A stretch of 64,000 nt of DNA from Halolamina salifodinae (GTDB lineage Archaea > Halobacteriota > Halobacteria > Halobacteriales > Haloferacaceae). Positions 112 to 50,068 of this stretch are shown here, piece by piece. Where the stretch lies: NCBI RefSeq assembly GCF_017874235.1, contig NZ_JAGGLC010000004.1, forward strand, positions 186,001 to 250,000, written 5' to 3'. Position numbers and translations under genes: made by a program. The notes below the pieces were generated by a model, which was not told the origin of the DNA, ran no database searches, and saw only the letters and a program-made list of their open reading frames with translations. Every line of letters starts with the position of its first letter. Position 1 is the first letter of the stretch.

Positions 112-188
112 TCAGTCGTCCTGCCCGCCGGACCGCGTGCCGGGCACCTCAGTCGTCCTGCCCGCCTGACCGCGTGCCGGGCAGCTCA
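112..188 (-). repeat. 37-base tandem hairpin repeat 3' of purF
   Basis: There are two complete 37-base units (112-148 and 149-185), two mismatches apart. The start of a third coincides with the last codons and stop of purF (from 186). Each unit starts on the plus strand with TCAGTCGTC, the complement of the Asp-Asp-stop that ends purF. Each can fold: TGCCCG at 122-127 pairs with CGGGCA at 141-146, and CTGCCCG at 158-164 pairs with CGGGCAG at 178-184. Because 37 is not a multiple of three, the three stop copies lie in three different frames. It may be a 3'-end or termination structure, but no T-run is present. Confidence 0.85.
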
Positions 189-1667
189 GTCGTCCGCGAC
201 GGCGCCCTCGATCTCCGGTCGACTCACGTCCCGATCCGTCGTCTCGCCGTCGATCTCGTAGGGGTACTCGCCGGTCACGCAGCCCAGACAGAGGTCCGCG
301 CGGGACTCGCCGAGCACCTCGGCGACGCCGTCGACGCTCAGATACGAGAGCGAGTCGCCGCCGACGACCTCGCGGATGTCGTCGGTGTCCTGCCCGGCAG
401 CAATTAGCTCCTCGCGGGAGGCCATGTCGATCCCCATGTAGCAGGGTGCGACGATCTCGGGAGCGCCGATCCGGAGGTGAACCTCCGCGGCGCCGGCGTC
501 CTCGAGCAGCGAGACCAGTTGGGTCGAGGTGGTGCCGCGGACGATGCTGTCGTCGATGAGGGTGACGGTCTTCCCCTCGACAGTCGAGCGAATGGGGTTG
601 AGCTTCAGGCGGACCGCCTGCTCGCGCTGGTCCTGGGTGGGCATGATGAACGTCCGACCCACGTAGCGGTTCTTCATCAGCCCCTCCGCGAACTCCGGGG
701 CGTCGTCGCCGAGTTCCTCGGTCGCGGCCTCGGCGTAGCCCGTGGCGAACGCGCGCCCGGAGTCGGGCACGGGCATCACCACGTCGCTCTCGACGCCCGA
801 CTCCTCCCAGAGGCGCGCCCCCAGGCCGCGCCGGGTGTCGTAGACGAGTTCGTCGTCGATGACCGAGTCCGGGCGCGCGAAGTAGACGTGCTCGAAGAAG
901 CAGTGGGCGGTGTTTTCCTGCTCGATTAGCTGGTAGCTCTCGTAGCCCGAGCCGTCGGGTTCGAGCAGCACCAGTTCGCCCGGTTTCACGTCCCGGATCA
1001 ATTCGCCGCCCAGCGTGTCGATGGCCGCCGACTCGCTGGCGAGCACGTAGCCGTCGTCGACCTTGCCGAGACAGAGCGGGCGGTTCCCCTGCGGGTCCCG
1101 GATCCCGATGACGGTCTCGTCGTGCATCACCGTCAGCGCGTAGGAGCCGTGGATGCGGTCCATCGTGCGCTTGACCGCGCGCACGAGATCCGCGTCGAGC
1201 AGGTTGCGCGCGAGATCGTGGGCGATGACCTCGGTGTCGCCGTCGGAGGTAAAGGCGTGACCCTCGCCCGCCAGTTCCTCGCGGATCTCGCCGGCGTTGA
1301 CCAGATTGCCGTTGTGTGAGAGCGCGAGCGACCCCGACCGGAACGAGACCGTAAACGGCTGTGCGCAGGCCTTGTCGACGCTGCCGGCGGTGGGGTAGCG
1401 GACGTGGCCCACGCCGTTCTCGCCCTGGAGGCCGTCGAGGTCGTCCTCGGTGAACGCCTCGCCGACCAGCCCCATCTTGACGTGGTCGTGCTGCTGGAAC
1501 CCGTCGTGGGTGACGATGCCCGCGGACTCCTGCCCGCGGTGCTGGAGCGCGTAGAGCCCGTAGTAACAGGGGCGAGCAGCCCCCCGTTCTTCGAGTGCGA
1601 CGCCGACGACGCCGCACTTGTCGCGCATCCCGTCGTCGGCCGGCCCCGCAGCCGAACCCTCGTGCAT
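186..1667 (-). CDS. purF: Amidophosphoribosyltransferase (glutamine PRPP amidotransferase)
   Basis: This enzyme catalyses the first committed step of purine synthesis, PRPP plus glutamine to phosphoribosylamine, in the cytoplasm. The N-terminal Ntn-hydrolase domain begins at CGVVG (Cys18 with this start), which implies removal of a short propeptide to expose the nucleophile. The C-terminal phosphoribosyltransferase domain carries the PRPP loop VTLIDDSIVRGTTS. Cysteines in HCFFEHVYF, PCYMGID and CLGC match the four Fe-S ligands of the Bacillus-type enzyme. I chose the ATG at 1667 because a TATA-like TTTTTGG lies about 27 bases upstream, fitting a leaderless mRNA. ATGs at 1694 and 1628 are also in frame. 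The gene ends in Asp-Asp-stop, and that end is recopied downstream in the tandem repeat. Confidence 0.95.
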   Translation of the reverse strand: MHEGSAAGPADDGMRDKCGVVGVALEERGAARPCYYGLYALQHRGQESAGIVTHDGFQQHDHVKMGLVGEAFTEDDLDGLQGENGVGHVRYPTAGSVDKACAQPFTVSFRSGSLALSHNGNLVNAGEIREELAGEGHAFTSDGDTEVIAHDLARNLLDADLVRAVKRTMDRIHGSYALTVMHDETVIGIRDPQGNRPLCLGKVDDGYVLASESAAIDTLGGELIRDVKPGELVLLEPDGSGYESYQLIEQENTAHCFFEHVYFARPDSVIDDELVYDTRRGLGARLWEESGVESDVVMPVPDSGRAFATGYAEAATEELGDDAPEFAEGLMKNRYVGRTFIMPTQDQREQAVRLKLNPIRSTVEGKTVTLIDDSIVRGTTSTQLVSLLEDAGAAEVHLRIGAPEIVAPCYMGIDMASREELIAAGQDTDDIREVVGGDSLSYLSVDGVAEVLGESRADLCLGCVTGEYPYEIDGETTDRDVSRPEIEGAVADD

Positions 1668-1690
1668 ACGCGTAGCTGAGGGATGGGAGA

Positions 1691-1697
1691 CCAAAAA
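1691..1697 (-). promoter_or_regulatory. TATA-like box for purF
   Basis: TTTTTGG on the minus strand lies about 27 bases before the chosen purF ATG at 1667. This is the distance expected between an archaeal TATA box and the start site of a leaderless haloarchaeal transcript. Confidence 0.4.
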
Positions 1698-1844
1698 CCC
1701 CCGCTATCGTGCCCTATCTCTGCCGGAAGCTCCCAGAGTTATACAGCTACGTGCATACCCGTCGCCGTCGACGAGACAGGATCCGTAGCGACGCTGTCGC
1801 TCCCGGGAGGCGTCGACGGCGGAGAACGAAGCGACGGCTGTGAG

Positions 1845-1930
1845 GAGAGCGCCGTCGCTGACGGGTGGAGAAAGCGGCCGCAGAGAGCGCCGTCGCTGAC
1901 GGGTGGAGAAAGCGGCCGCAGAGAGAACCG
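1845..1930 (-). repeat. 38-base tandem hairpin repeat 3' of rpl37e
   Basis: Two identical 38-base units (1845-1882 and 1883-1920) and the start of a third directly follow the rpl37e stop codon at 1931-1933. On the minus strand each unit contains CCGTC-AGC-GACGG, a perfect five-pair stem with a three-base loop, and the palindrome GCGGCCGC. A looser, related stretch continues to about 1800. The stretch between the array and purF contains no gene. Confidence 0.85.
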
Positions 1931-2107
1931 TCAGTTGTCGCCGTTTTTCGACTGCCACGAGTAGCCACGACGCTTGGCGGACTTCCCGAAGCCACACGAC
2001 GAACACTGCTTTTTCTTCGTGTGGTAGGATTTCTCCCCGCAGCGGCGGCATTTCGTGTGAGTCGTGTTGTTCTTCTTCCCCTGGCTGGGTGTTCCTGCGC
2101 CGGTCAT
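1931..2107 (-). CDS. rpl37e: 50S ribosomal protein L37e
   Basis: A 58-residue basic zinc-ribbon protein of the archaeal/eukaryotic large ribosomal subunit. Zinc ligands are Cys20, Cys23, Cys35 and Cys38 in the pattern C-x2-C...C-x2-C. The N-terminus ([13 protein letters not shown]) and the Lys/Arg-rich body are typical of haloarchaeal L37e. Its ATG overlaps the TGA of the upstream lsm gene (ATGA, four bases shared), so the two are probably translationally coupled. This lsm-L37e pairing is widespread in archaea. A tandem hairpin repeat starts directly after its stop codon. Confidence 0.95.
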
Positions 2108-2334
2108 AGAGTTACCGAAACGACGTTGTCGCCACGGATAATCGTTGTGTTGTCCACTTCCTCGACGTCGAGTTCGCCCAGCACAGCGTCGCTGGCGTCG
2201 GCGGGGTCGAGAACTACGTTCATGTGCTGGTCGTAGCCCGAGAGCGTCCCGTAGAAGGACTTGCCGTCCTTCAGGTGGACCGTCACCGGCTCCGAGAGCG
2301 ACTCTTCGAGCACGTCGAGCGGGCGTCCACTCAT
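2104..2334 (-). CDS. lsm: Lsm (Sm-like) RNA-binding protein
   Basis: A 76-residue archaeal Lsm protein, expected to form a ring that binds U-rich RNA and small RNAs. The Sm1 motif spans about residues 21-42 ([17 protein letters not shown]) and the Sm2 motif (IIRGDNVV) lies near the C-terminus. I chose the ATG at 2334 over the in-frame GTG at 2340. A TATA-like TTTATTT lies 25-30 bases upstream, which suggests a leaderless lsm-rpl37e mRNA. It overlaps rpl37e by four bases. Confidence 0.95.
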
Positions 2335-2356
2335 GGTCACTCAAACCCCGGTCGTG

Positions 2357-2366
2357 GAAATAAACG
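2357..2366 (-). promoter_or_regulatory. TATA-like box for lsm-rpl37e
   Basis: GTTTATTTCC on the minus strand, about 25-30 bases upstream of the lsm ATG, is a good haloarchaeal TATA box for a leaderless transcript. Confidence 0.5.
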
Positions 2367-2402
2367 TACCGAACCGCCGACGAGGGTCTCACAGGCCCAG
2401 AT

Positions 2403-3206
2403 CTACTCCAGCGTGCCGACCTCCTCTGCCGCGTAGCCGAAGATGTCGTCGTACCCCTCAGCGGAGAGGAGCACCGGGTAGAACGGCTCGTCGGCCGTCA
2501 GCGCCTCGCCATCGGCCAGCGCGAACCGCTCGCCAGCCTCGACTTTCTCGAAGTTGGGCACCACCACGTCGTACTCCTTCCCCGGCGGCTTGGGGATCGG
2601 GCCATCGAGGCGGAACACGCGGACGTCGTCGCGCTCCGGCAGTCCTTCGTGGTCGTCGCCGACCGGCGCCGACATCGCGTTCGAGGCGGTGAGGAACGCC
2701 CGGACCAGCCAGTAGGCGTTTTCGGCGGCCCCGTCGCTGCCCTGGAGGCCACACTCCATCTCGATGGTGTGGGCGTGCTCGATCAGGCGGCCGTCGGTGT
2801 GTTCGTCGGTCTCGATCAGCACGTCGACGGGCAGCAGCGGCGCGAGCGAGCGCGCGATCTCGTCGACGGTGTCGATCACCGCGATGGGTTCGGCGTAGGA
2901 CTGCGTGGAGTGCAGCGCCAGCACCGTACAGCCCTGTACCTCGCGGGCGAGTTCGTGTGCCAGCCGGGACTCGTGAGTGGGGCCATCGGGGTCGCCCGGG
3001 AACGCGCGGTTGAGGTCTTCTTCGAGGAACCGCACGCCCTGCTCGAGGGCCTCCTCGTTGGCGACGATGAGCTTCACCGGGCGGTCGACGTCGGGGTCCT
3101 CGGCGACGAGGCGCTCGACGGCCTCGACGCCGCAGGGCTCGTCTCCGTGGATGCCGGCGACGACTGCCAGCTCGGGCTGCCCCTCGCCCAACTGGTGGAT
3201 TCGCAT
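2403..3206 (-). CDS. Succinylglutamate desuccinylase/aspartoacylase family zinc hydrolase
   Basis: A 267-residue M14-type zinc hydrolase of the AstE/AspA family, which cleaves N-acyl amino acids. Visible zinc ligands are His20 and Glu23 in GIHGDEPCG and His99 in LALHST. The substrate-binding NRAFPG motif is at residues 66-71. The natural substrate cannot be read from the sequence. I used the ATG at 3206 because it directly precedes the conserved N-terminal beta strand; the reading frame extends further upstream without family similarity. It lies just downstream of an M42 peptidase gene on the same strand, so joint use in peptide or amino-acid turnover is possible but inferred. Confidence 0.85.
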
Positions 3207-3250
3207 ACACTGAGGGATGGGACCGATAGGCAAGAAGGGATCGCTCCGGA

Positions 3251-4279
3251 TCAGTCCACCAGTTCGCCGGTCCGCGCCAGCGCCGCCGCCAGCAGATCGA
3301 CCGTCGCCGTCAGGTCCTCGCGATGCGCTGTCTCGACCGGCGAGTGGTGGTAGCGCACCGGCACCGAGAGCGCGCCGGAGCGCACCGCGCCGCCGGCGTT
3401 CTGGAGCGCGCCGGTGTCGGTGCCGATGTTCCACGCTACCTCGTGCTGGTGCTCGATGTCCTCGTCCTCGGCAACGTCGGTGAACCAGTCCACCACTTCG
3501 GGGCTGGGGATGACGGAGGCGTCCTTGCGCTTGATGCCGACGCCGTCGCCGAGCGTGGTGATCCGGTCGGCCGCCTCGACGCCCGAGACGCTCCGTTCCA
3601 GCGTGCCGTCGAGCGCGATGACGAGATCCGGGTCGAACTCGTCGCTGGTCGCCACTACGCGAGCACCGCGCAGGCCGACCTCCTCTTGGACCGTCGCGCA
3701 GAAGTGGACCGTCGCGTCGGGGTCGGCTGCGCGCGCGGCCGCGAGCATCGCGTAGACGCCCGCGCGGTCGTCCAGCGCCTTGCCGGTCACGCAGTCACCC
3801 AGCACGCGTGGGTCGGTATCGAGCGTGACCACGTCGCCGACCGAGACGGCGTCGGCGGCATCGTCGCCGTCGAGACCGAGGTCCACCGCGAGGTCGTCGA
3901 TGTCCCCCACGTCGTCCTCGTCGCGGGTGTGGGCCGGTTCGGCGCCGATGACGCCCGCCACCTCGCCGTCGTCGGTGTGGACCGTCACTGGTTGGGCGCG
4001 GAGGATCTGGGCGTTCCAGCCGCCGAGCGAGTCGAGTTTCAGGAACCCCTCGTCGTCGACCCGGGAGACCATAAACCCGATTTCGTCCATGTGGGCCGCG
4101 ACGACGACTTCGCGGTCGCTGTCGCCCTCCGCCGTTCCCACCACGTTCCCCATCGCGTCAGTCTCCATGCGGTCGACTTCAGGACCGAGCGCTTCGCGGA
4201 CCACCTCGCGGACGCCGTCCTCGTAACCAACGGGGCCCGCGGCGCCCGAAAGGTCGAACAGTAGATCGCGGTCGTGCAT
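3251..4279 (-). CDS. M42 family metallopeptidase (TET-like aminopeptidase)
   Basis: A 342-residue cytoplasmic aminopeptidase of the M42 family, which forms large tetrahedral complexes that degrade peptides. Di-metal and catalytic residues are visible: His63 and Asp65 in AAHMDEIGF, Asp170 in LDDRAG, Glu199-Glu200 in QEEVGLRG, and the late histidine in RYHHSPVE. Length is normal for the family. It is followed by the AstE-like gene after a short gap. Confidence 0.9.
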   Translation of the reverse strand: MHDRDLLFDLSGAAGPVGYEDGVREVVREALGPEVDRMETDAMGNVVGTAEGDSDREVVVAAHMDEIGFMVSRVDDEGFLKLDSLGGWNAQILRAQPVTVHTDDGEVAGVIGAEPAHTRDEDDVGDIDDLAVDLGLDGDDAADAVSVGDVVTLDTDPRVLGDCVTGKALDDRAGVYAMLAAARAADPDATVHFCATVQEEVGLRGARVVATSDEFDPDLVIALDGTLERSVSGVEAADRITTLGDGVGIKRKDASVIPSPEVVDWFTDVAEDEDIEHQHEVAWNIGTDTGALQNAGGAVRSGALSVPVRYHHSPVETAHREDLTATVDLLAAALARTGELVD

Positions 4280-4336
4280 ACCCGAGGCTGTTCCGGGTCC
4301 GCCAAAGGCGCTCCGGTCGGGGTGACCGTCGCCGGC

Positions 4337-5122
4337 TCAGGGGAGCCGTGCGAACCGCCAGAGGGAGGCCTCTTGATCGAACCCCAGCGACTCGTAGAAT
4401 CCGACGTGCTCGCTCGTGGCGCAGACGACCATTCGTTCCGCGGGGACCGAGCACCGATCCACGACTGTCCGGACCAGTTCGGCGCCGACGCCCTCATCCT
4501 GCGCGTCGGGCCGGACGCCGACGTGGGTGAACCGGGCGACTGGCTCGTCGCCGGCCCCGCCGTCGTGGACGTACCAGCCGGCGGCACCGACTGGCTCTCC
4601 CCCGCGGGAGACGACGACCTCGCGCCCGTCGAGCGCGCTCGCAACCGCGGCTGCGTAGTCGATGCCGGCCGGATCGCGTCCGACCGACTCGTGGACGGCC
4701 TGCGCCTCGTCACTCCCGTGCTGGTGGGTCGCGAACCGGAGGCCTGTGTCGTCGCTCGGCAGGTCGATGGAGTCCGGGGCGAGCGCCCGGTAGTCCTCGC
4801 GCTCGTAGCCGTGATCCCTGAGGACAGGGTCGAGTCGGACCGCCGTCTCGGTGTCGTAGCCGGCGACGACGCGGTGGGGGAGGCCGTGGCGCTCGTAGAG
4901 GGCGTCGAGTTGGTCGAGCAGCGACTGTGCGGCCTCGTCTTCCCCCACTGTCGCCGGTGGCTCCGCCGCGGACGGAAGCCGCGTGTCGAGTAGCTGTGTC
5001 GCCGCCGCCCGGTCGTCGTGGGTGGTATCGTGGACGAACGTCCCGAACCACGTCTCAGTCACGTCGGCGAGGACACGCCGCTTGGCGTACTCCGCGGCGG
5101 CGATGCGGCTGGTGGAGAGCAT
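4337..5122 (-). CDS. GNAT family N-acetyltransferase with N-terminal extension
   Basis: 261 residues. The C-terminal half is a GNAT fold: ARFTHVGVRPDAQDEGVGAELV is the acetyl-CoA pyrophosphate-binding segment, and HVGFYESLGF is the usual closing helix-strand. The first 110 or so residues are a helical extension rich in acidic residues, of unknown role. The ATG at 5122 follows the TGA of the upstream DUF309 gene with a single base between them, so the two form a coupled pair. The substrate is unknown. Confidence 0.8.
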   Translation of the reverse strand: MLSTSRIAAAEYAKRRVLADVTETWFGTFVHDTTHDDRAAATQLLDTRLPSAAEPPATVGEDEAAQSLLDQLDALYERHGLPHRVVAGYDTETAVRLDPVLRDHGYEREDYRALAPDSIDLPSDDTGLRFATHQHGSDEAQAVHESVGRDPAGIDYAAAVASALDGREVVVSRGGEPVGAAGWYVHDGGAGDEPVARFTHVGVRPDAQDEGVGAELVRTVVDRCSVPAERMVVCATSEHVGFYESLGFDQEASLWRFARLP

Positions 5123-5123
5123 C

Positions 5124-5621
5124 TCACCCCAGCCCCGCGGCGTACTCGTAGTCGGCGGGGTACGCGTCGGGCGTATGGTCGTCGATGGCGATGCGCCAGG
5201 GGTCGATGAGGTGGGGTTCGAACGTCGCCAGCAGCAGGCGACGCCGGACATCGGCGACGTCGATGCCGTAGAAATCGCCGGGGACGCCGCGGAGATACTC
5301 GAGGGCGGTGGAGAACAGCGAGCGCATCCCGGCGTCGCCGGCCTCGGCGCCCCGGCCGGCCTCGGCGGCGTGTTTGTGCGTGCCGGCGGCGACCTGCTGC
5401 ATCCCGTGGCAGAACGCCGACTCGGCGGTGCCGCGGCCGTAGTTGTACCACTCGAACTTGAAGCAGTCGTAGCTCTCGGTGTAGGCGCCGTCGTTGTAGA
5501 GACGGACGCCGTGTTCGGCCGCGCGGCGGAGCGTCGCGTGCTCCCACCGGCGGTCCTCGCGCCACCCGGTCGGGTTCCCCAGCGGCGGGGCAACGCCGGG
5601 GTCACGGGTGTGTTCGTCCAT
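5124..5621 (-). CDS. DUF309 family protein
   Basis: A 165-residue helical protein. The segment FKFEWYNYGR followed by HGMQQVAAGTHKHA matches the DUF309 core, a small all-helical family with conserved aromatic, His and Gln residues and no established activity. It is the first gene of a two-gene unit with the acetyltransferase (one base between stop and start). Upstream lies the truncated tRNA-Leu promoter region facing the other way. Confidence 0.75.
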   Translation of the reverse strand: MDEHTRDPGVAPPLGNPTGWREDRRWEHATLRRAAEHGVRLYNDGAYTESYDCFKFEWYNYGRGTAESAFCHGMQQVAAGTHKHAAEAGRGAEAGDAGMRSLFSTALEYLRGVPGDFYGIDVADVRRRLLLATFEPHLIDPWRIAIDDHTPDAYPADYEYAAGLG

Positions 5622-5796
5622 CGTCGGGGCGATAGGCCGGTAGGAGTGTGAAACTATCGGCGAGCGAGCGGCCCTGATCGGCGCCGAATCGACGCGAACG
5701 GCTCGCTGGAGGCGATGAGTCGGCGCTGGGGCGACGACGGATCGACGGCGCCCTGCCGCCGAAATCAGGGCGCGGCAGTGGCTTCACGACTGAGAA

Positions 5797-5806
5797 GGTT
5801 TTAAGA
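5797..5806 (+). promoter_or_regulatory. Original tRNA-Leu promoter, now upstream of the integrase
   Basis: GGTTTTAAGA lies about 45-50 bases before the 5' end of the truncated tRNA copy (5851). It looks like the original TATA box of the tRNA-Leu gene. After integration it faces the tRNA 5' half and then the integrase gene. Confidence 0.5.
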
Positions 5807-10649: not shown

Positions 10650-10695
10650 TGCGTGCGAGGGTAGCCAAGCTCGGAAACGGCGGCGGACTCAAGAT
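10650..10695 (+). repeat. attR: 46-base direct repeat within intact tRNA-Leu
   Basis: Identical to 5846-5891. Here the repeat continues into the remainder of the tRNA, so this end keeps the functional gene. The crossover must lie at or before the end of the anticodon loop. Confidence 0.9.
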
Positions 10696-10738
10696 CCGCT
10701 CCTGTAGAGGTCCAAGGGTTCAAATCCCTTCCCTCGCA
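10655..10738 (+). tRNA. tRNA-Leu (CAA)
   Basis: 84 bases. The acceptor stem GCGAGGG (10655-10661) pairs fully with CCCTCGC (10731-10737), with A as discriminator. The anticodon stem GCGGA/TCCGC encloses the loop CTCAAGA, which gives anticodon CAA (reads UUG). The long variable arm is typical of tRNA-Leu. The T arm is AAGGG-TTCAAAT-CCCTT. The 5' half is shared with attL. CCA is not encoded. Confidence 0.93.
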
Positions 10739-10800
10739 TCGCCGGGGCAACCACCCCGAGATGCAGGAAGACGCTCTCGGAGCGCTCTTCCCTCGCAAAA
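10709..10800 (+). repeat. 92-base perfect direct repeat, copy 1 (tRNA 3' end and trailer)
   Basis: This copy runs from the tRNA variable arm through the mature 3' end into the trailer, and recurs without mismatch at 10943-11034. The trailer holds two hairpins: GCATC ... GATGC around 10736-10764, and GAAGA-CGCTC at 10767-10776 with GAGCG and TCTTC at 10780-10790. Confidence 0.95.
10736..10790 (+). terminator. Hairpin pair in the tRNA-Leu trailer
   Basis: Two consecutive stem-loops follow the tRNA. The second has ten pairs with one bulged C and is followed by CCTCGCAAAA. There is no T-run, so this may be a processing or stabilising structure instead of a terminator. An identical copy follows the pseudo-tRNA. 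Confidence 0.4.
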
Positions 10801-18933: not shown

Positions 18934-19010
18934 ACGCAACCGTCGCCGGGAGCGTTCTTTACTCCGGCGGGTGCGGGACGGCGACGACGACGACCCCGCC
19001 GTTCACATGG

Positions 19011-19106
19011 CCGCGGTTGGCCGTCACCGCGGCCGAGTTTCGCACTCCCGCGGTTGGCCGTCACCGCGGCCGAGTTTCGCACTCCCGCGGTTGGCCGTCA
19101 CCGCGG
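19011..19106 (-). repeat. 37-base tandem hairpin repeat 3' of the KaiC-like gene
   Basis: Two complete 37-base units (19011-19047, 19048-19084) and the first 22 bases of a third (19085-19106) end seven bases before the stop codon of the KaiC-like gene. Each unit contains CCGCGGTTGGCCGTCACCGCGG, in which CCGCGGT and ACCGCGG form a perfect seven-pair stem, joined by a 15-base linker. Copies are identical where they overlap. Confidence 0.9.
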
Positions 19107-19113
19107 GAGAGCT

Positions 19114-20331
19114 TCAGAAGATGTTCGCCTGCCGGTACACCGAGATCCCTTCGTTGGTGATCTCGTACGGTTTGGTCTCGCGGGAGTGGTTCGCGTCCCG
19201 GATCTTCTGAATCTCGACGGCCAGTCTGGTCTCCCGGAAGTCCGACGGCCGGACGTACTGGAGGATGAACACCGCGTCCACGAGGTACTCGATGATCCCG
19301 TACCGCGAGGTGTAAGCGTCGTCGCTGCTGGCCTCGGAGGTGAGCATCGTCGTCACCCCGGCGCGCTTGAGCGAGCGCGCGAAGTCGAACACCTCCGAGC
19401 GGCGCTCGGCCGGGTGGTCGTACATCATCTCCAGCAGCGAGACCGAGTCGAGCACCAGTCGGTCGGCGTCGAACGCCTCGACCAGCCGCGAGATGTCGCT
19501 CCGGATCGACGCCAGCGAGTTCGCCATCTCGATGGGGTCCATCGCGACGATGGCCAGCCGTCCCTCGTCGCGCCACTCCCGGAACGGCCAGCCCTTCTCC
19601 TCGGCCGTCGAGAGGATCGCCTCCCGGGACTCCTCCAGCGTGATGTAGATCGCTCGCTCGTCGTTCTCGAGGCTCTCGGTCAGGAACTGGAGCCCGACCG
19701 TGGTTTTCCCGGTCCCGGCGGCGCCGATGGACACCATCAGCGAGCGTTCGGGAACTCCGCCGAGGATCATCTCGTCGAGACCCTCGATCCCGACGTTGAC
19801 CCGGTCGATGTCGGAGTCGAGTTCGGCCTCGTCGAACGACTCGGCCTCGTCGCCGAACCCCTCCTCGCCACCGAATCCTTCGTCCCCGCCAAAGCCGCCG
19901 CCGAACCCACCCTGGTCGCCGCCTGTCTCACGACCGCCGGCGCGGCCGCCGAATCCGTCCTGCTCGCCGCCGAAGCCATCTCCCTCACCGAACGAGTTCT
20001 GCCCCTCCGCCGCTTCACCGCGGGATCCGCCGAACGGGTCGCTCTGGTCGCCCCCACCGCGGGACCCACCGAACGGGTCCGCCTGCTCCTCACCCGGCCC
20101 CCCGGCACCGCCGAAGGGGTCTGCCTCCTCTTCGTCACCGAATCCACCGAACGAATCAGTCGGCGTCTCCTCGGACTCGGCAGTCTCGCTTTCCGCTTCC
20201 GCGGTCTGCTCCGGCTCTTCGCCAGCCTCCTCCTCGGCGTCCGCAGCCGCGCTCGGAGAACCGCTCTCGCCTTCGCTTTCGCCCTCGCGCATCGCTTGCT
20301 CGAACCAGTCTTCCTCCTCCTCGTCACTCAT
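19114..20331 (-). CDS. RecA/KaiC-like ATPase with long disordered FGG-rich N-terminus
   Basis: 405 residues. The C-terminal 240 residues are a single RecA/KaiC domain with Walker A GAAGTGKTT, a KaiC-like glutamate pair (ITLEES) and a Walker B-like strand (RLVLDSVSLL). The N-terminal 165 residues are low-complexity and acidic, with repeated DPFGG, GFGG and EE stretches. A good ribosome-binding site (GGAGGTGA) lies about 9 bases before the ATG at 20331. Related archaeal proteins act in signalling or in the archaellum (ArlH), but the exact role is unknown. A 37-base hairpin repeat follows. Confidence 0.85.
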   Translation of the reverse strand: MSDEEEEDWFEQAMREGESEGESGSPSAAADAEEEAGEEPEQTAEAESETAESEETPTDSFGGFGDEEEADPFGGAGGPGEEQADPFGGSRGGGDQSDPFGGSRGEAAEGQNSFGEGDGFGGEQDGFGGRAGGRETGGDQGGFGGGFGGDEGFGGEEGFGDEAESFDEAELDSDIDRVNVGIEGLDEMILGGVPERSLMVSIGAAGTGKTTVGLQFLTESLENDERAIYITLEESREAILSTAEEKGWPFREWRDEGRLAIVAMDPIEMANSLASIRSDISRLVEAFDADRLVLDSVSLLEMMYDHPAERRSEVFDFARSLKRAGVTTMLTSEASSDDAYTSRYGIIEYLVDAVFILQYVRPSDFRETRLAVEIQKIRDANHSRETKPYEITNEGISVYRQANIF

Positions 20332-20452
20332 CTCGACCTCACCTCCGCGATGCGCACAGTCATTACGCGATTGTCGGCGCCCCCGCAAATGAAGCTTGTC
20401 CGTCCAGGGGCGGATCCGCGCGCTTTTGCCGGCGGCGGTGGAACCGCCGACC

Positions 20453-21274
20453 ATGCTGGTCGGTATCGTCGCCAAGCGGGACAACAAGCGGGCGTCGTTC
20501 CTCGCGGCGGAGATCCGTGACCGCCTTCGGGAGGACGATGTCGACGTGTGGCTCGACGAAGCCACCGCGAGCGACCACGACGACGCCGGTCACCCCGTCG
20601 CCGAGATGGACGCTTGCGACCTCGTGGTCGCCATCGGCGGCGACGGGACGTTCCTGTTCGCAGCCCGCGGCGTCGGCGGCACGCCGATCCTCGGCGTCAA
20701 CCTGGGCGAGGTCGGCTTCCTCAACGCCATCGGGCCCGAAACGGCCATCCACGAAGTGGTGCTGGCCGTCGACGGCCTCCGCGAGGACGATCTCTCGGTT
20801 CGCGAGGCGCCCCGACTCGTCGCCGCCGGCGAGGGCTGGGAGAGCCCCACCGCCGTTAACGAAATCGTGCTGCAGGGGCCCCAGCGCGGCCGCGCGGGCG
20901 GCGTCGATCTGGAAATCCGGGTCGACGGCTCGCTGTTCTCCTCGGGCCATGCCGACGGCGCGCTGGTCGCGACGCCGACCGGCTCGACCGCGTACAACCT
21001 TTCTGAGGGCGGGCCGCTGGTCCACCCCGACGTGAGCGCGATGGTCGTCAACGAGATGTGTGCCGACGAGGGGATGCCGCCACTGGCGGTCGGACCCGAC
21101 AGCGAGGTCACTGTCCGACTCACCGGCAGAGAGACGGCCCACGTCGTTGTTGACGGCCGGGTGACCCGGAGCCCCGACCTACCGACGATGGTGACGGTTC
21201 GAACCGCCGACACTCCGATCCGGATCGCCGGCCCGGATGCCGAGTTCTTCGAGGCGCTGAACAAGCTAGAGTAG
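20453..21274 (+). CDS. nadK: NAD kinase
   Basis: 273 residues. This enzyme phosphorylates NAD to NADP using ATP or polyphosphate. The diagnostic GGDGTFLFAAR motif is near residue 63 and the NAD-binding ATPTGSTAYNLSEGG motif is in the second half. The ATG at 20453 follows a CTTTTGC element by about 25 bases. It is divergent from the KaiC-like gene and convergent with carB. Confidence 0.93.
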   Translation: MLVGIVAKRDNKRASFLAAEIRDRLREDDVDVWLDEATASDHDDAGHPVAEMDACDLVVAIGGDGTFLFAARGVGGTPILGVNLGEVGFLNAIGPETAIHEVVLAVDGLREDDLSVREAPRLVAAGEGWESPTAVNEIVLQGPQRGRAGGVDLEIRVDGSLFSSGHADGALVATPTGSTAYNLSEGGPLVHPDVSAMVVNEMCADEGMPPLAVGPDSEVTVRLTGRETAHVVVDGRVTRSPDLPTMVTVRTADTPIRIAGPDAEFFEALNKLE

Positions 21275-30793: not shown

Positions 30794-30937
30794 TTAGTCG
30801 CCCAGCCCGGCCGACTACCGCCGGTCAGATCAGTCGCCCAGCCCGGCCGGCCGTCGCCGGTCAGATCAGTCGCCCAGCCCGGCCGGCCGTCGCCGGTCAG
30901 ATCAGTCGCCCAGCCCGGCCGGCCGTCGCCGGTCAGA
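30794..30937 (-). repeat. 36-base tandem repeat, four units, 3' of an oxidoreductase gene
   Basis: Units are 30794-30829, 30830-30865, 30866-30901 and 30902-30937; the last three are identical and the first differs at a few positions. Each contains CCGGC-CGTC-GCCGG, a five-pair hairpin, and starts on the plus strand with TCAGTCGCCC, a near copy of the end of the preceding gene (TCAGTCGTCC at its stop, 30938). As 36 is a multiple of three, three of the four units repeat the stop in the gene's own frame; the outermost unit has TTA, giving TAA. Confidence 0.92.
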
Positions 30938-32182
30938 TCAGTCGTCCGCGACCGGGGCCTCGAGGTCGTCGACGCTGAAGGACTGCTGCATCAATGTCTC
31001 CTTCTCGGTGTCGACGCGAGTGCCCTCACGCATCAACTGCTTGTACGCCGACTGGGGCGCCAAGTCGCCGATCAGGACGCCGCCGACGATACGGCCGTCC
31101 TTCAGGGCGAGGCGGCGCCACTCCGTGTCGGAGTACTTCTGATCGACGCTGTCGTCGCCCATCGTCGGGTGGCCAAAGGAGAGGAACGGGAAGTCGAAGT
31201 GCGTGATCGAGTACGAGGAGACCCAGCGGAACTCGTCGGTGCCGTAGTCGAGCATGTTGTTGGCCGCACACTCGCCCTGTGCCTTCGCGGAGCCCCACGC
31301 GCCGTTCTGGGCCTGATCGCCGAGGATCAGGTCGTCGAACTTCGTGCAGTCCCCGGCCGCGTACACGTCCTCGAGGTTGGACTGCATGTACTCGTCGACG
31401 ACGATGCCCTCGCCGTCGTACTCGATCCCCGTTCCGCGGAGGATCTCGGTGTTGATGTCCAGCCCGATGGCGACGCCGGCGAAGTCGGCGTCGTACTCGT
31501 TGCCGTCGGGGTCGACCGCCGACTCGATGCGGCCGTCGTCGTCGACTTCGAAGTGATCGATGCCGGAGTCGAACACGGGGGTGACCCCGCGCTCGCGCAG
31601 CGCGTCGTGGATGATCTCGGCGCCCTCCTCGCTGAGCGCGTAGCGCCACCACGCGTTACCACGCATCAGGTAGTTGGCCTCGACGTCCTGGGCGCCACAG
31701 ATGGCCGCGAAGTCGATGCCCAGCAGGCCGGCGCCGACGATGACGCCGGTGTCGGCCTCCTCCACGTCGGCCTTGATCTTGCGGGCGTCCTCGAACGTCC
31801 AGAAGTGGTGGACCCCCTCCGCGTCGGAGTTGTCGACCGGAAGCTGTGCGGGCGTCCCGCCGGTGGCGATCAGCAGTTTGTCGTACTCGTAGCTGTCGCC
31901 TTCGTGGCTCGTGACCTCGTGGGCGTCCGTGTTGATGTCGACGACGAGGGTGTTGAGCTGGAGGTCGATATCCCGCTCCGCATACCACGACTCGTCGTGG
32001 ATGGAGATAGGCGCCTCGGGAAGCTTCCCCTTCGCGAACTCCTTGATCAGAATACGGTTATAGAGGGCCTCCCCCTCGTCGGTGATGACGGTGATGTCGG
32101 CGTCGGGGGCGTTCTCGCGCAGCGTCTCCGCCGCGGAACTCCCCGCGACACCGTCCCCGATGATCACGAACGACTGACTCAT
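30938..32182 (-). CDS. NAD(P)/FAD-dependent oxidoreductase (nitrite reductase large-subunit-like)
   Basis: 414 residues. There are two dinucleotide-binding motifs: FAD at the N-terminus (IIGDGVAGSSAAETL) and NAD(P) mid-protein (GVIVGAGLLGIDFA). The second FAD motif is DVYAAGDCTKF. It resembles the rubredoxin/NAD reductase part of NirB-like enzymes but has no Cys redox pair or Fe-S binding region, so the electron acceptor is unknown. A two-codon ATG-GCA-TGA frame overlaps the start (ATGA). It ends in Asp-Asp-stop followed by the 36-base tandem repeat. Confidence 0.85.
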   Translation of the reverse strand: MSQSFVIIGDGVAGSSAAETLRENAPDADITVITDEGEALYNRILIKEFAKGKLPEAPISIHDESWYAERDIDLQLNTLVVDINTDAHEVTSHEGDSYEYDKLLIATGGTPAQLPVDNSDAEGVHHFWTFEDARKIKADVEEADTGVIVGAGLLGIDFAAICGAQDVEANYLMRGNAWWRYALSEEGAEIIHDALRERGVTPVFDSGIDHFEVDDDGRIESAVDPDGNEYDADFAGVAIGLDINTEILRGTGIEYDGEGIVVDEYMQSNLEDVYAAGDCTKFDDLILGDQAQNGAWGSAKAQGECAANNMLDYGTDEFRWVSSYSITHFDFPFLSFGHPTMGDDSVDQKYSDTEWRRLALKDGRIVGGVLIGDLAPQSAYKQLMREGTRVDTEKETLMQQSFSVDDLEAPVADD

Positions 32183-32300
32183 GCCATGGCGTTTGGATTC
32201 GGGGGTTAATGTGGGTTGCCATACGGCTCTCGCCACGCGTTTCGGGCGTAGATGCCGCGCTCGCTGGGTTCAAGGCTGTCGCGGTGCTACGGCCAGACAG

Positions 32301-44493: not shown

Positions 44494-44541
44494 CTGTGTG
44501 TACTCTCGTACTAACAGCCGATGGATAACCTTTTCGAACTC

Positions 44542-44559
44542 GTTGAACGCTCGTTCAAC
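44542..44559. promoter_or_regulatory. Palindromic operator candidate between the RND and zinc-ribbon genes
   Basis: GTTGAACG (44542-44549) and CGTTCAAC (44552-44559) are exact complements around two bases. This is the size and style of a TetR-family operator. It lies in the divergent promoter region, 93 bases from the RND ATG and 47 from the zinc-ribbon protein ATG. A half site ACGTTCAG occurs at about 44591. The TetR gene at 45089 is a likely partner. Confidence 0.6.
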
Positions 44560-44605
44560 CCCGCCAGACGGAAGCGCTTTTGCTGACCAGACGTTCAGTA
44601 GCGGT

Positions 44606-45031: not shown

Positions 45032-45072
45032 TCGGGCGGGGTCGTCGGACCGACACGCCTATGGCCGCTTAC

Positions 45073-45082
45073 TGAATATTCA
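45073..45082. promoter_or_regulatory. Autoregulatory palindrome candidate at the TetR gene start
   Basis: TGAATATTCA is a perfect ten-base palindrome seven bases before the TetR ATG, within ACTGAATATTCAATCAGT (ACTGA/TCAGT arms). Binding there would block transcription of a leaderless gene. It shares the TTCAA element with the larger operator candidate at 44542-44559. Confidence 0.5.
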
Positions 45083-45088
45083 ATCAGT

Positions 45089-45708
45089 ATGGGGGAGACA
45101 CCACCGTTCCTCTCGGACCCCGAGACCACCCGGGAGTCGATCATGCACGCGACGTATCTCGCGCTGTGTGAGCACGGCTACGCCGGCCTGACGATCCAGC
45201 GCATCGGCGAGCAGTTCGAGAAGAGCAAGTCGCTGCTGTACCACCACTACGACGACAAGGACGAACTACTGCTGTCGTTTCTGCAGTTCATGCTCGAGGA
45301 ACACCAGTCGTCGGTGCCCGAAACCGTCGACGACGGCGCCGACGAGCGACTCGACGCGATGCTGGACGTACTGCTCCCGCCGACGCTGGACGAGGAGGAG
45401 CAGGGGTTCACCGCCGCGATGGTCGAACTCCGGGCGCAGGCCGCCCACGACCAGCGCTACCGCGAGCAGTACGCCGAACACGCCCACGCGTTCCACGAGC
45501 ACCTCGTCTCGGTCATCGAGGACGGGATCGAGGAGGGGGTGTTCCGAGACGTGGACCCGGACCAGGTCGCACAGTTCCTCGGCACACTGACTAACGGCGC
45601 GATGACCCGGCGAGTCACCGGCGGCGGCGACGAATCAGTGACCGCGACCCGCGCGGAGGTCAACGCGTACATCGACCGCGTGCTGCGGGCCGGAACGGAG
45701 GGCGGCGA

Positions 45709-45712
<4 letters not shown>
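45089..45712 (+). CDS. TetR/AcrR family transcriptional regulator
   Basis: 207 residues. The N-terminal helix-turn-helix is RESIMHATYLALCEHGYAGLT ... EKSKSLLYHHYDDKDELL, the classic TetR form. The C-terminal domain is all-helical and acidic. It is the first gene of a three-gene operon with an ABC ATPase and permease; its TGA overlaps the GTG of the next gene. It probably represses this efflux operon and itself. Confidence 0.9.
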
Positions 45713-46424
<712 letters not shown>

Positions 46425-46428
<4 letters not shown>

Positions 46429-47669
46429 AACTCGGTGAAAGCGTCCGGATGAGCTGGCGCGCGATCACGGGCCACAAGCTCCGGTCGGTGCTGACGGTGC
46501 TGGGCGTCGTCATCGGCGTCGGCTCGGTGATCACGTTCGTCACGCTGGGCGCGAGCCTGCAGGCCGCCATCGTCGGCGACGTGGCCACCTCCAGCCCGGA
46601 GATCGCCGTCACGGTCGGGCCCGAGAGTCAGGGTGGCCCCGGTGGCGGTGGCGGCGGCGAGGCCGTCCCGGTGTTCACTGAACACGACATGGCGCAGCTA
46701 CGGGAAATCGAGCACGTCGAGGCGGTGGTGCCGACCGGACAGGTCGGGATCGCGGCTCTCGGACACGGGAACGACACGGTCCGATGGCCGTCGATGACGG
46801 CGACGACTCGCGACTCCTTCGCGGGCGACTCGTTCCAGTCCGGCGGCCCGTTCGAGGTCGGCGCCAACGAGGCGGTGCTCAATCCCGCCGCGGCGACGAT
46901 GTTCGCCGAGAACGTCTCGGCTGGCGAGGAGATAACCGTCGAGTTCGCCGAGAACGACACGCGGGCGCTCGTCGTCGCGGGCGTGTTGAACGAGTCGAGC
47001 GGCTTCGCGGCCGTCGCGGCCAGCGGGACGCCCGCGGTGTACGTCCCGACGGACCCGTTCTACACCACGACCGCCGAAAGCCCCGCGACCGGCGAGCGCG
47101 AGCGCGCCTACCCACAGCTCACGATCCGGGCGAGTAGCTACGAGCGGGTCGACGACGTGGAGCCGCTGGCGCGTGACTACCTCGAAAACGAGTCCGACGC
47201 CAGCCAACTCAAACCGGACTCCTACGAGATCAGCCTGACCACCAACGACGCGCTGGTCGAGCAGATCCAGGGCATCCTGAGTACGTTCACCAACTTCATC
47301 ACCGGCGTCGCGGTGATCTCGCTGCTCGTCGGCGCCATCGGCATCGCGAACATGATGCTCGTGAGCGTCACCGAGCGCACCCGCGAGATCGGGATCATGA
47401 AGGCCATCGGCGCCACCCGCCGGGACATCGTCCAACTGTTCCTGGTGGAGTCGGTGATACTGGGGGTGATCGGCTCCGTGATCGGGACGCTGGTCGGTCT
47501 CGCGGGCGGCTACGCGGCCGCGACGTTGATCGACCTCCCGGTCGCGTTCGCGCCCGAGTGGTTCGCTATCGCCGTCGCGGTCGGCATCGGTGTCGGCATG
47601 CTCGCCGGGATCTACCCCGCGTGGGACGCTGCCCGAACCGACCCTATCGACGCGCTGCGACACGAGTAG
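46425..47669 (+). CDS. ABC transporter permease (MacB/FtsX-like)
   Basis: 414 residues. An N-terminal helix (VLTVLGVVIGVGSVITFVTLG) is followed by a large extracellular MacB core domain (residues 45-285, with a Gly-rich loop near residue 65), then three helices with the FtsX signature GIMKAIGATRRDIVQLFLVES. The C-terminus DAARTDPIDALRHE is typical. The export substrate is unknown. Confidence 0.92.
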
Positions 47670-47714
47670 TCCCTGCTGATGTCCCTTCCCCCACTGGCGC
47701 TTCCCCCTCCACTT

Positions 47715-47822
47715 CGCCGGTCGCTCGCTGCTTCGGCCCTCCATCCCGCTGACGTTGCCTTCCATCCCTCTCCACCCCGCTGGCGCCCCTCCATCGCCGG
47801 TCGTCCGCGGCTTCGGCCCTCC
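47715..47822. repeat. Imperfect 28-base direct repeat in a pyrimidine-rich 3' region
   Basis: CGCCGGTCG...GCTTCGGCCCTCC occurs at 47715-47742 and 47795-47822 with four differences, 80 bases apart, between the convergent permease and dehalogenase genes. The whole 180-base gap is C/T-rich on the plus strand (TTCCCCC, CCTCCATCCC), so the minus-strand transcript would be purine-rich. Confidence 0.6.
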
Positions 47823-47846
47823 CTCGATTCTCGTTTGCGGACCTGC

Positions 47847-48530
47847 TCAGACGCCCAGTCGGTCCGCCAGATCGTGGATGTCCTCGACCGTGAGGTCCGG
47901 GTCGCCGGCGAAGCCGTCCCACGGCGTTCCCTTCCGGTCGATCCACACCGACTGCATCCCGGCGTGGCGGGCGCCGAGCACGTCGAACCACCCCGCCGAG
48001 ACGTGGGCGATCTCGTCGATGGGCGTCCCCGTCCGGGCGGCAGCGTGGCGGTAGAGTTCGGCGGCCGGCTTGAACGTCCCAATCTCGTCGGCGCTGATCG
48101 TGTCCGCGATCAGGTCGCCGATATCGGCGTGTTCGACCATCGAGGCGAGCATCTCGGGGTTGCCGTTGGAGACGACGTACGTGTCGTAGCCGCCGTCGTG
48201 GAGGCGCTCGATCCCCTCGCGCACGTCGGCGAACACGTCGAGTTCGTGGTAGACCGCGAGGATCTCGTCGCGTTCTTCCGGGGTGATGTCGACGCCGTTC
48301 GCGTCGAGTGCGTACTGGAGGGCGTCGCGGTTCATCTCGTAGAACGGCTGGTAGGCGTCGACCTGGTTGGCGACGAACGTGTACGCCAGCGAGCGTGAGC
48401 GCCAGAGCGCCGAGACGGGTCCGGGCTCGGGCACCCGGTCGGCCAGCGCGGCCTCGGCGGCGTCGACGTCGACCAGCGTGCTGTACGAGTCGAACGTGAC
48501 CGTCGAGACGCGGTCAGGGTCGAACGACAT
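47847..48530 (-). CDS. L-2-haloacid dehalogenase-like HAD hydrolase
   Basis: 227 residues. Motif I is FDSYSTLVD (nucleophile Asp at the first D), motif II is VSNGN, motif III Lys lies in GTFKPA, and motif IV is VSAGWFDVLGARHAG. The cap domain (DRVPEP ... YHELDVFADV) is type I helical. Haloarchaeal members of this group often have phosphatase or dehalogenase activity; which one applies here is unknown. Confidence 0.85.
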   Translation of the reverse strand: MSFDPDRVSTVTFDSYSTLVDVDAAEAALADRVPEPGPVSALWRSRSLAYTFVANQVDAYQPFYEMNRDALQYALDANGVDITPEERDEILAVYHELDVFADVREGIERLHDGGYDTYVVSNGNPEMLASMVEHADIGDLIADTISADEIGTFKPAAELYRHAAARTGTPIDEIAHVSAGWFDVLGARHAGMQSVWIDRKGTPWDGFAGDPDLTVEDIHDLADRLGV

Positions 48531-48620
48531 ACGCCCGGCGATGGGGCCGGGCCGGAGTTAGGGCTGCCGACGGCGACACGGCCACCGCGCGCTCTTGTAC
48601 CGGGCGCCCCAAGGGGAGCC

Positions 48621-48989
48621 ATGCCCCTGTTAACGATCACCACGAGCGCCGACCCGCCGGAGACGCGGTCCTTTCTCGCCGGCGTCGCCGACCGATACGC
48701 CGACGTGATGGACAGCGAGACGCGCTTTCTCACCGTGAACCTCCGGCGGAGCGACCGGGAGGACCTGTGGCTCGGCCGGGCGGATCCGGAGGAGCCCATC
48801 GTCCTGCTCGAAGCCGACATCCGGGAGGGTCGGCCCGCGGACCAGCGACGGACGTTCGCCCTCGCGTTCATGCAGGAAGTTCGCGACGCGTGGGGCGTCC
48901 CGGAGGCGAACATGAAGGTCGTGTTCACCGAACACGAGGGGTCCCACCTGATGGGCTACGACCGTATCGGCGGCGACTGGGAGCCGTGA
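48621..48989 (+). CDS. Tautomerase-fold protein
   Basis: 122 residues beginning MPLLTITTS. The N-terminal Pro after Met removal is the catalytic base of the tautomerase (MIF/4-OT) superfamily. The length and MKVVFTEHEG late strand fit the longer two-unit form. No substrate can be assigned. A GGGGAGCC ribosome-binding-like sequence directly precedes the ATG. Confidence 0.7.
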   Translation: MPLLTITTSADPPETRSFLAGVADRYADVMDSETRFLTVNLRRSDREDLWLGRADPEEPIVLLEADIREGRPADQRRTFALAFMQEVRDAWGVPEANMKVVFTEHEGSHLMGYDRIGGDWEP

Positions 48990-49034
48990 GCCGGCGAAGC
49001 CGGGTTTAAGCACTCGCCCGCCCAACCGGCGCGC

Positions 49035-49457
49035 ATGGTCTCTGATACGCGACTGTACGGTGGCGCCATCGGCGTCGTCTCCGGTGGCTACTCGCTGTGG
49101 AGCGCGTCGATGGCGACAGCGATGGGTCTCGGCGGCTGGCTGATGGCCGTGCTGGGGGTCGTCGTCCTCGTTCACGGCGCGCTACTGCTCACGGAGTTCG
49201 CCGACCGGATCGGCGACGCCAGCGGGCCGCTGATGATCGCCTATTCGGTGCTGATGCTGCTGAATCAGGCGCTCGTCGGGTTCGGAATGATGGACGGCGC
49301 GGGGATGATGGACGGCGCGGCGATGGATCAGCGAATGATGGACGGCAGCACGATGGCCGGCATGGGCTGGGACCCCGGGATGGTCGCGCTCGCGACGCTG
49401 ATGCTCGTCAGCGGCGTCATCATGGCTCGTGACGGCGACTCCGCAGGAGGAATGTGA
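49035..49457 (+). CDS. Met-rich membrane protein, unknown function
   Basis: 140 residues. Four hydrophobic helices (GGAIGVVSGGYSLW, LGGWLMAVLGVVVLVHGALL, PLMIAYSVLMLLNQALVGFG and VALATLMLVSGVIMA). Between the last two is a Met-rich loop, GMMDGAGMMDGAAMDQRMMDG, with ten Met in thirty residues. Met-rich loops of membrane proteins often bind Cu(I). A TTTAAG box lies about 27 bases upstream of the ATG at 49035. No family is recognised. Confidence 0.65.
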   Translation: MVSDTRLYGGAIGVVSGGYSLWSASMATAMGLGGWLMAVLGVVVLVHGALLLTEFADRIGDASGPLMIAYSVLMLLNQALVGFGMMDGAGMMDGAAMDQRMMDGSTMAGMGWDPGMVALATLMLVSGVIMARDGDSAGGM

Positions 49458-49963
49458 GTCGGTCACGGGACCCGAACGCGGTTACTCTCAGGCCAGCCTA
49501 ACGCGGTCAATATCGACCCGGGCCCGGATCGACGAGGTAGCGCAGCAGATTCCCTTCGCGACGGGGTCGTTCCTGAATCGGCCGGGTTCGTTGCTCGAGC
49601 ACCTTCGGTGAGGGGGCTTTTCGTCGAGCGTTTTGCAAGCGAGCAGCACGGTACCCCCGGCGTCCCGCTCGCCGTACGGGCGACTTGCGGGTCGCCCGTG
49701 CGACGTAGCGGGAGCTGCCAAGGTCGAATGTCGCCCGGAACACTAACTGCCAGCCTCATCCCTGGGCTGCGTGCCGTGTCGGCTGGCTAACCCTCGTGCC
49801 GGGCGGCCGGGTACGCCCCGGCGAGCGGTCGCTCTCGCGACGAATGTACCGCGCCCGGGTTCGCCACTCGGTCATCGCTCCCGTCTGGGAGTACTCGGGT
49901 GGGGACTAAAGGCGCGGTGTGGTTCTATCGGGTGCAGCCGGTTAAAAGGAGCGTCGGGGCGGC
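49458..49963. other. Structured intergenic region, possible small RNA on the minus strand
   Basis: About 500 bases without a credible gene. A TATA-like CCTTTTAACCGG lies on the minus strand near 49940-49951. Farther along is a long near-perfect stem: TCCCGCT/AGCGGGA enclosing ACGGGCGAC/GTCGCCCGT (about 49657-49713). Open frames here in several phases have no protein character. I tested for SRP RNA, RNase P RNA and tRNA motifs and saw none. Confidence 0.35.
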
Positions 49964-50068
49964 TCAGTCGTCACCGGCTGTTCGCCTCGGTGACACCCTC
50001 AGTCGTCACCGGCTGTTCGCCTCGGTGACACCCTCAGTCGTCACCGGCTGTTCGCGTCGGCGACACTT
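49964..50068 (-). repeat. 35-base tandem hairpin repeat 3' of nhaC
   Basis: Three units: 49964-49998, 49999-50033 and 50034-50068; the outer two are identical and the one next to the gene has four substitutions. Each begins on the plus strand with TCAGTCGTC (Asp-Asp-stop of nhaC on the minus strand) and contains GTCACCG (49970-49976) facing CGGTGAC (49988-49994), a perfect seven-pair stem. In the gene-proximal copy one base change is compensated by G-U pairing. The stop copies fall in different frames. Confidence 0.92.

What the first reader, a model, noticed from the sequence alone, without database searches (positions are those of the whole stretch)
112..50068. Recurrent class of 35-38-base hairpin tandem repeats directly after gene stop codons
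Five minus-strand genes (ends at 186, 1931, 19114, 30938, 50069) are each followed, within 0-7 bases of the stop, by 2-4 contiguous tandem units of 35-38 bases. The unit sequences differ between loci, but size, contiguity, one GC-rich stem-loop per unit and position just 3' of the gene are shared. At three loci the unit also recopies the gene's own last codons and stop. This looks like repeated independent creation of 3'-end hairpin arrays by duplication of a gene end. They could act as terminators, mRNA-end protectors or ribosome-release sites. All five clear cases are on the minus strand in this window, which may be chance.
Basis: partly seen in the sequence, partly recalled or inferred. Interest (0 to 1): 0.8.

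Follow-up and report, generated by a model that had tools for sequence, protein, structure and literature searches.

The report
Haloarchaeal tandem hairpins at gene borders
In a salt-loving archaeon and its sister species, short DNA hairpins that share one loop but have changing stems are lined up in tandem at the ends of genes or just upstream of promoters, which looks like an undescribed family of REP-like repeats with a possible role at transcription borders.

Summary
The five arrays are real, and a sixth was missed. The genome is a Halolamina (haloarchaeon). Three of the six arrays carry, and two resemble, one hairpin family: units of mostly 34-39 bases with a stem of 5-10 bp, an 8-base loop R-N-Y-N-G-N-C-A, and a linker copying the sequence left of the array, often the gene's own last codons and stop. 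The L37e array (1845-1932) is a plain duplication. Stems are kept by compensatory change: after the kaiC-like gene of five species, 45 of 45 cells pair and 7 of 9 pairs changed on both sides. Tandem pairs of the hairpin occur in 6 of 6 Halolamina genomes (55 matches) and once each in 7 of 385 others. Stems start 0-9 bases after a stop codon (14 of 22), or 45-56 bases upstream of a start codon, pointing away (14 of 20). Orthologous sites range from empty to several units. I read them as REP-like elements that reach transcription-unit borders, expand in tandem and act as folded untranslated RNA; RNA action and a binding protein are inferred. A selfish DNA element is the main rival.

The parts
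112..185 (-). Two 37-b units directly after the stop codon of purF (186-1694); stem with a 9-b loop variant (ACGCGGTCA in unit 1, by my reading) and unit end GGACGACTGA = gene end
   Evidence: the same 9-b loop recurs at another Halolamina locus, G042 305674-305830
19003..19113 (-). Three 37-b units after the stop codon of a kaiC-like gene (19114-20565); loops GACGGCCA; units 1 and 3 differ by compensated stem bases, unit 2 looks like a chimera of them
   Evidence: (model matches 19010-19033, 19047-19070, 19084-19107)
30794..30937 (-). Four 36-b units after the stop of a Pyr_redox_2/nirB-like reductase gene (30938-32236); loops GACGGCCG (three) and GGTAGTCG, unit end GCGACTGA in three units
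   Evidence: single X-H-X or empty site in named Halolamina species
49964..50068 (-). Three 35-b units after the stop of an NhaC-family antiporter gene (50069-51661); variant hairpin GTCACCG..CGGTGAC, unit end GACGACTGA
   Evidence: empty site with matching downstream sequence in G391
63601..63682 (-). In-frame 36-b array inside the N-terminal coding part of a DUF4212 gene (63555 onward, + strand); hairpin on the minus strand, loops GACGGTCG and GATGGTCG with a compensated stem change
1845..1930 (-). 38-b tandem duplication after the stop of ribosomal protein L37e (1931-2392); NOT of the hairpin family

Best explanation
These are REP-like dispersed stem-loop repeats of the genus Halolamina. 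A unit is a hairpin (stem mostly 5-10 bp with changing sequence, closing pair mostly C-G, loop R-N-Y-N-G-N-C-A) followed by a linker whose end copies the sequence left of the array (X). Copies reach transcription-unit borders, immediately after a stop codon or about 50 bases upstream of a start codon pointing outward, and then grow or shrink head to tail by slippage or unequal recombination between the X copies. The fold is kept by selection. The single strand on which it acts is most likely the RNA that emerges untranslated: the mRNA just past the stop codon, or the antisense RNA that archaeal bidirectional promoters start near -50. There a loop-binding protein, unidentified, would use the array to end or bound that transcript. 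Shown: hairpin, common loop, covariation, genus restriction of the tandem form among the genomes searched, X-H-X layout, presence/absence and copy-number change at orthologous sites, border positions. Inferred: the recombination step, action as RNA, the protein, and a termination or boundary effect.
For: Perfect stems of at least 6 bp with an 8-b loop: 23 of 68 intergenic against 2 of 288 coding carry the loop motif; reversed motif 6 of 68 and 10 of 288. With stems of at least 5 bp, 30 of 41 motif hits are intergenic against 9 of 29 and 10 of 29 for two control motifs. TRF arrays chosen without regard to hairpins: 7 of 15 intergenic ones have such a loop in their best hairpin (looser loop rule). 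Covariation on sequences not picked by pairing: 5 species after the kaiC-like stop, 45 of 45 cells paired, 7 of 9 pairs changed on both sides, 0 of 500 shuffles reach it (2 of 7 genomes lack the hairpin and were left out); a sub-family of 9 copies, 91.7% paired, 5 of 8 pairs changed on both sides, 0 of 500, though its number of pair types does not exceed shuffles. Genus restriction. Position: stop at 0-9 b on the left of 13 of 23 arrays, on the right of 1 of 21; start at 45-56 b on the left of 14 of 20, on the right of 2 of 22 (orthologous arrays are not independent; taking the first array of each locus, 15 of 18 within -12..9 and 6 of 10 within 45-56). 0 of 15 arrays before a co-directional gene leave less than 38 b, while 157 of 423 co-directional pairs in the sample do. 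Left flank matches own linker 9.1 of 15 b against 4.5 permuted, right flank 9.6 against 4.7. Antisense starts near -50 from one TATA box are described in Pyrococcus (PMC6640164, passages).
Against: No transcript data. G-U against A-C at internal stem mismatches, which could tell RNA from DNA, was 2 to 1, undecided. The DUF4212 arrays (2 genomes) lie inside coding sequence antisense to the gene, which a terminator role does not explain, and the opposite strand there folds as well (z -5.6 against -4.5). Many species lack the array at the same site, so it is dispensable. Stem length alone exceeds shuffles in only 5 of 15 intergenic arrays, and the purF array folds no better than shuffles. A published 3'-end study of Haloferax found mainly T stretches at intergenic ends and hairpins only for a subset (PMC7237163, passages). 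The loop rule used from then on fixes four positions, so the base counts are partly by construction, as are the pair counts. Distances rest on my own gene caller.
Confidence: 0.45

Rival explanations
1. Selfish REP-like DNA: the hairpin is a single-stranded DNA substrate of a transposase or similar enzyme that recognises the loop. Border positions are simply where insertions do no harm, and the X copies are target duplications.
For: Empty and filled orthologous sites, with X on both sides of single hairpins at several of them. Near-identical hairpins at two loci of one genome, e.g. G191 1307292 and 2057036, G074 441896 and 571765. In-frame copies inside DUF4212. REP ends often supply stop codons (PMC3733652, passages).
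Against: Y1_Tnp genes are found in 5 of 7 Halolamina genomes only; G191 and G391 have arrays but no Y1_Tnp match (G391 is 79% complete). Stems differ widely between loci with compensation, unlike fresh copies. Anchoring is tight at the left end only.
Confidence: 0.32
2. Local tandem duplication without function: slippage makes the arrays and template switching between near-palindromes keeps the stems perfect. This is.
For: The kaiC array seems to have a chimeric middle unit. L37e and some gene ends in other genera are duplicated without this hairpin. Periods of 33-39 b are not rare elsewhere.
Against: Does not explain one conserved loop at unrelated loci, genus restriction or a shared 38-b sub-family.
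Confidence: 0.13
3. Ordinary intrinsic terminators that happen to be duplicated.
For: GC-rich hairpins after stop codons; T runs lie within 50 b after some arrays (by eye, e.g. C1s 112001 and L254); a hairpin before a Haloferax termination site ended 59% of transcripts in a reporter (PMC7237163, passages).
Against: No T run of the terminator kind directly follows the hairpin within the units (by eye). The loop is conserved and 14 of 42 arrays are antisense at -45 to -56. Passages of PMC7515710 state that archaeal 3' ends show U tracts without preceding hairpins.
Confidence: 0.08

Closest known systems
REP elements (GTAG and CGTC families; REPs, REPINs, BIMEs of bacteria)
   Same: 20-40 b stem-loops, extragenic, predominantly downstream of genes, even supplying stop codons, some families limited to a species or genus, compensated stem changes, possible RNA role (PMC3733652, passages)
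   Different: Archaeal host; head-to-tail tandem with a period of mostly 34-39 b; loop conserved and stem changing; GTAG within 8 b of the stem in only 7 of 43 arrays; no transposase present in all genus genomes; linker copied from the left flank
MIRU of mycobacteria
   Same: Scattered tandem units, copy number differs between strains (PMC2734929, passages); ends overlapping stop codons is recalled, not from a call
   Different: MIRU units are 40-100 b and, as recalled, share primary sequence; here stems differ and a hairpin with a common loop is kept
TAACTGA intergenic direct repeats of Beggiatoaceae
   Different: Heptamers, mostly just before start codons
Archaeal terminators (T stretch, AGATC, hairpin S12 in Haloferax)
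   Same: Hairpins near transcript ends exist in a subset (PMC7237163, passages)
   Different: No common loop or tandem array mentioned in the passages seen

Membership tests
REP elements | 20-40 b palindrome, dispersed, mostly extragenic | tested here: met
REP elements | GTAG or CGTC tag at one end of the hairpin | tested here: not met
   GTAG within 8 b 5' of the stem in 7 of 43 arrays; CGTC was not counted in a valid way
REP elements | associated RAYT/IS200-type transposase | tested here: not met
   PF01797 in 5 of 7 genus genomes, not in G191 or G391; whether any is flanked by the hairpins was not examined
REP elements | inverted pairs (BIME, REPIN) | tested here: not met
   no fetched locus has called arrays on both strands (the two long sample contigs were left out of that count)
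MIRU | tandem units at the stop codon of the upstream gene (feature recalled) | tested here: met
   3' class
MIRU | unit of 40-100 b | tested here: not met
   34-39 b in 79 of 81 spacings
Intrinsic terminator | hairpin directly followed by a T run | tested here: not met
   linkers, by eye; some arrays have a T run further on, within 50 b
Known Rfam RNA families | match at gathering score | tested here: not met
   only tRNA in the window and in 8 array loci
CRISPR array | repeats separated by unique spacers | tested here: not met
   contiguous units, whole unit repeated; cas genes were not searched

The most novel reading that the evidence does not exclude
A new archaeal border element: arrays of loop-conserved RNA hairpins placed where untranslated RNA first emerges, both behind stop codons and at the start of antisense RNAs from bidirectional promoters, forming a dedicated protein-read signal that stops non-coding transcription on both sides of genes. 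It would have arisen in one genus from REP-like repeats.
Probability: 0.22. Interest if true: 0.82.

Novelty: new variant of a known kind. Interest (0 to 1): 0.6.

Why it matters
How archaea end transcription and contain the antisense RNA from their symmetric promoters is unsettled. A lineage that marks these places with arrays of one hairpin gives a testable handle: pull down what binds the loop, delete an array, map 3' ends. It also offers a REP-like repeat family in an archaeon, with natural presence/absence and copy-number variants at orthologous sites, that keeps its fold and loop while its stems turn over.

Tried and rejected
Independent creation at each gene: rejected as the whole story because of the common loop. 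L37e array as a member: rejected. Orientation set by replication direction: looked at by eye in the match list; own contig C1 carries mixed strands, so not pursued. RNA against DNA by G-U against A-C mismatches: one search was biased by allowing one G-U in the selection; one search gave 2 to 1; inconclusive. A Y1 transposase common to the genus: not supported. Period class alone as the signature: one search shows 16 in 701 kb against 7 in 475 kb; by my reading at least four of the eight other-genus arrays of 30-42 b printed there look coding. Gene-end duplication GACGACTGA..GACGACTGA as genus-only: rejected; 6 of 6 Halolamina genomes have it (42 matches) but so have 104 of 286 others, many in what look like coding repeats, while G131, G122 and G286 show hairpin gene ends too. 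Literature: searches showed no description of such arrays in haloarchaea in the rows listed; most subscription papers are not held. Pair counts rest on hairpins chosen for pairing and are not used as evidence. One array of 44 (C1s 381859, coding) was dropped as false; L222 was skipped, leaving 42; one search kept L222 and counted a false first unit in L222 and L239, hence 13 of 23 there against 14 of 22.
Full report
What was checked. TRF finds the five arrays at the given places with periods 35-38, and each begins at or within a few bases of the stop codon of a minus-strand gene. The genes are purF (186), ribosomal L37e (1931), a kaiC-like gene (19114), a Pyr_redox_2/nirB-like reductase (30938) and an NhaC-family antiporter (50069). 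A sixth array (63601-63682) lies in frame inside a DUF4212 gene. The genome is a Halolamina: the best named relatives of the reductase are Halolamina species at 87-90%. By equal contig lengths G391 seems to be H. pelagica CDK2 and G090 H. pelagica CGMCC 1.10329.

What the units share. In a 701-kb sample of the own genome I listed all perfect hairpins without regard to loop sequence. Stems of at least 6 bp with an 8-base loop carry R-N-Y-N-G-N-C-A in 23 of 68 intergenic and 2 of 288 coding cases; the reversed motif gives 6 and 10. All 23 intergenic ones fall at seven places that one search lists as tandem arrays. Of 15 intergenic TRF arrays of period 25-60, chosen without hairpins, 7 have such a loop in their best hairpin, as has 1 of 8 coding arrays, the DUF4212 one (looser loop rule); their stem length alone beats shuffled units at p < 0.05 in 5 of 15. 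The reductase array has the loop with a final G; purF and NhaC carry a 9-base and a longer loop variant (my reading). L37e does not.

The fold is kept. After the kaiC-like stop codon, five of seven genus genomes have a hairpin at the same place. In their gap-free alignment 45 of 45 cells pair and 7 of 9 pairs change on both sides, which no shuffle of 500 reaches. A 38-base sub-family that I picked by its common tail (7 copies from the listed matches, 2) pairs in 91.7% of cells with 5 of 8 pairs changed on both sides. The counts are circular, because those hairpins were picked for pairing.

Distribution. Two such hairpins 10-40 bases apart occur in 6 of 6 Halolamina genomes searched (55 matches; 1 control match) and in 7 of 385 other genomes of the class, once each, where the reversed control pattern scores at least as often. 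A covariance model finds 10-36 matches in each of 7 genus genomes at E up to 0.05 (132 in all). At E up to 0.02 it finds 63 in 5 genus genomes and one each in 10 of 189 others. Gene-end duplications with a hairpin also exist sporadically in other genera.

Anatomy. In 60 fetched loci plus the sample I found 44 arrays, dropped one coding false positive, and kept 43 with 124 units, 2-7 per array. Of 81 spacings 79 are 34-39. They fall into 28 loci by flanking homology. The 15 bases left of the first stem match the array's own linker at 9.1 of 15 positions against 4.5 when arrays are permuted (largest of 2000: 5.55); the right flank gives 9.6 against 4.7 (largest 5.75; 42 arrays). The layout is thus X-H-X-H-X. 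In the 3' class X is often the gene's last codons with the stop.

Position. Relative to the hairpin strand, 22 of 42 arrays follow a sense gene, with the stem 0-9 bases after the stop in 14. Twenty follow the start of an opposite gene, at 45-56 bases in 14; two of the rest are the coding DUF4212 arrays, and one is the second half of an array already counted. The tightness exists only at the left end: stop within 0-9 in 13 of 23 left against 1 of 21 right; start within 45-56 in 14 of 20 left against 2 of 22 right (Fisher p 2.6e-4 and 7.7e-5; related arrays inflate this). Taking the first array of each locus it is 15 of 18 (-12 to 9) and 6 of 10. Of 15 arrays followed by a co-directional gene none leaves less than 38 bases, while 157 of 423 co-directional pairs in the sample are that close. 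In 14 of the 5'-class arrays the gene side shows an A/T peak at -29 and at -11, which fits a TATA box and -10 element of a leaderless promoter (spacing recalled). Gene starts come from my own codon-based caller.

Change between species. At the purF, kaiC-like, NhaC, NhaC-paralogue and reductase 3' ends, species show no unit, a single hairpin unit (at most of these sites with X on both sides), or two to four units with different stems. At one 5'-class locus between a DUF5781-like gene (name from my reading of the protein) and a gene that reads as EF-2, four of seven genomes carry arrays and three do not. G090 keeps both flanks and lacks the array. Similar hairpins recur at different loci of one genome, so copies appear to spread.

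Reading. A conserved loop on a changing but paired stem suggests that a folded single strand is recognised. The two positions have one thing in common: untranslated RNA begins there, either past the stop codon or, if Halolamina promoters fire both ways as shown for Pyrococcus with antisense starts 49-50 bases upstream (PMC6640164, passages), at the first bases of the antisense RNA. I therefore favour REP-like repeats that were selected as RNA border signals. That step is inferred. A purely selfish single-stranded-DNA element is nearly as good, since nothing here tells RNA from DNA (G-U 2, A-C 1) and the DUF4212 copies fit it better. No Y1 transposase was found in 2 of 7 genomes that carry arrays.

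Known things. REP elements are the nearest kind: extragenic stem-loops, predominantly downstream of genes, sometimes giving the stop codon (PMC3733652, passages). The GTAG tag, the inverted pairs and a transposase common to the genus were tested and not met, so I do not file this as a REP family, but as a variant that works like one. No Rfam family matches at its gathering score.

Noticed in passing
63601-63682: A 36-b hairpin array encodes a 12-residue repeat in the N-terminal extension of DUF4212; G090 has a like array inside a gene at the orthologous locus (L242).
   Followed up: partly
1845-1932: 38-b duplication after ribosomal L37e, not seen as a duplication in six relatives (by eye).
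   Followed up: yes
G131, G122, G286: Gene-end duplications GACGACTGA-hairpin-GACGACTGA in other haloarchaeal genera, e.g. three places in G131 and a 34-b tandem in G122; possibly a wider class.
   Followed up: no
L078, after the gene-4 stop: Halorubrum aidingense has repeated copies of a short unit ending in the gene's own GCAGTAG directly after the stop codon, without this hairpin.
   Followed up: no
701-kb sample, intergenic: Perfect hairpins with a 5-b loop CGAAG (or its complement) at 16 separate intergenic places, twice as many as the next loop listed; perhaps a common terminator-like stem-loop.
   Followed up: no
10654-10756: ARAGORN calls a tRNA-Gln on the minus strand overlapping tRNA-Leu on the plus strand; of these two Rfam reports only the plus-strand one.
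   Followed up: no
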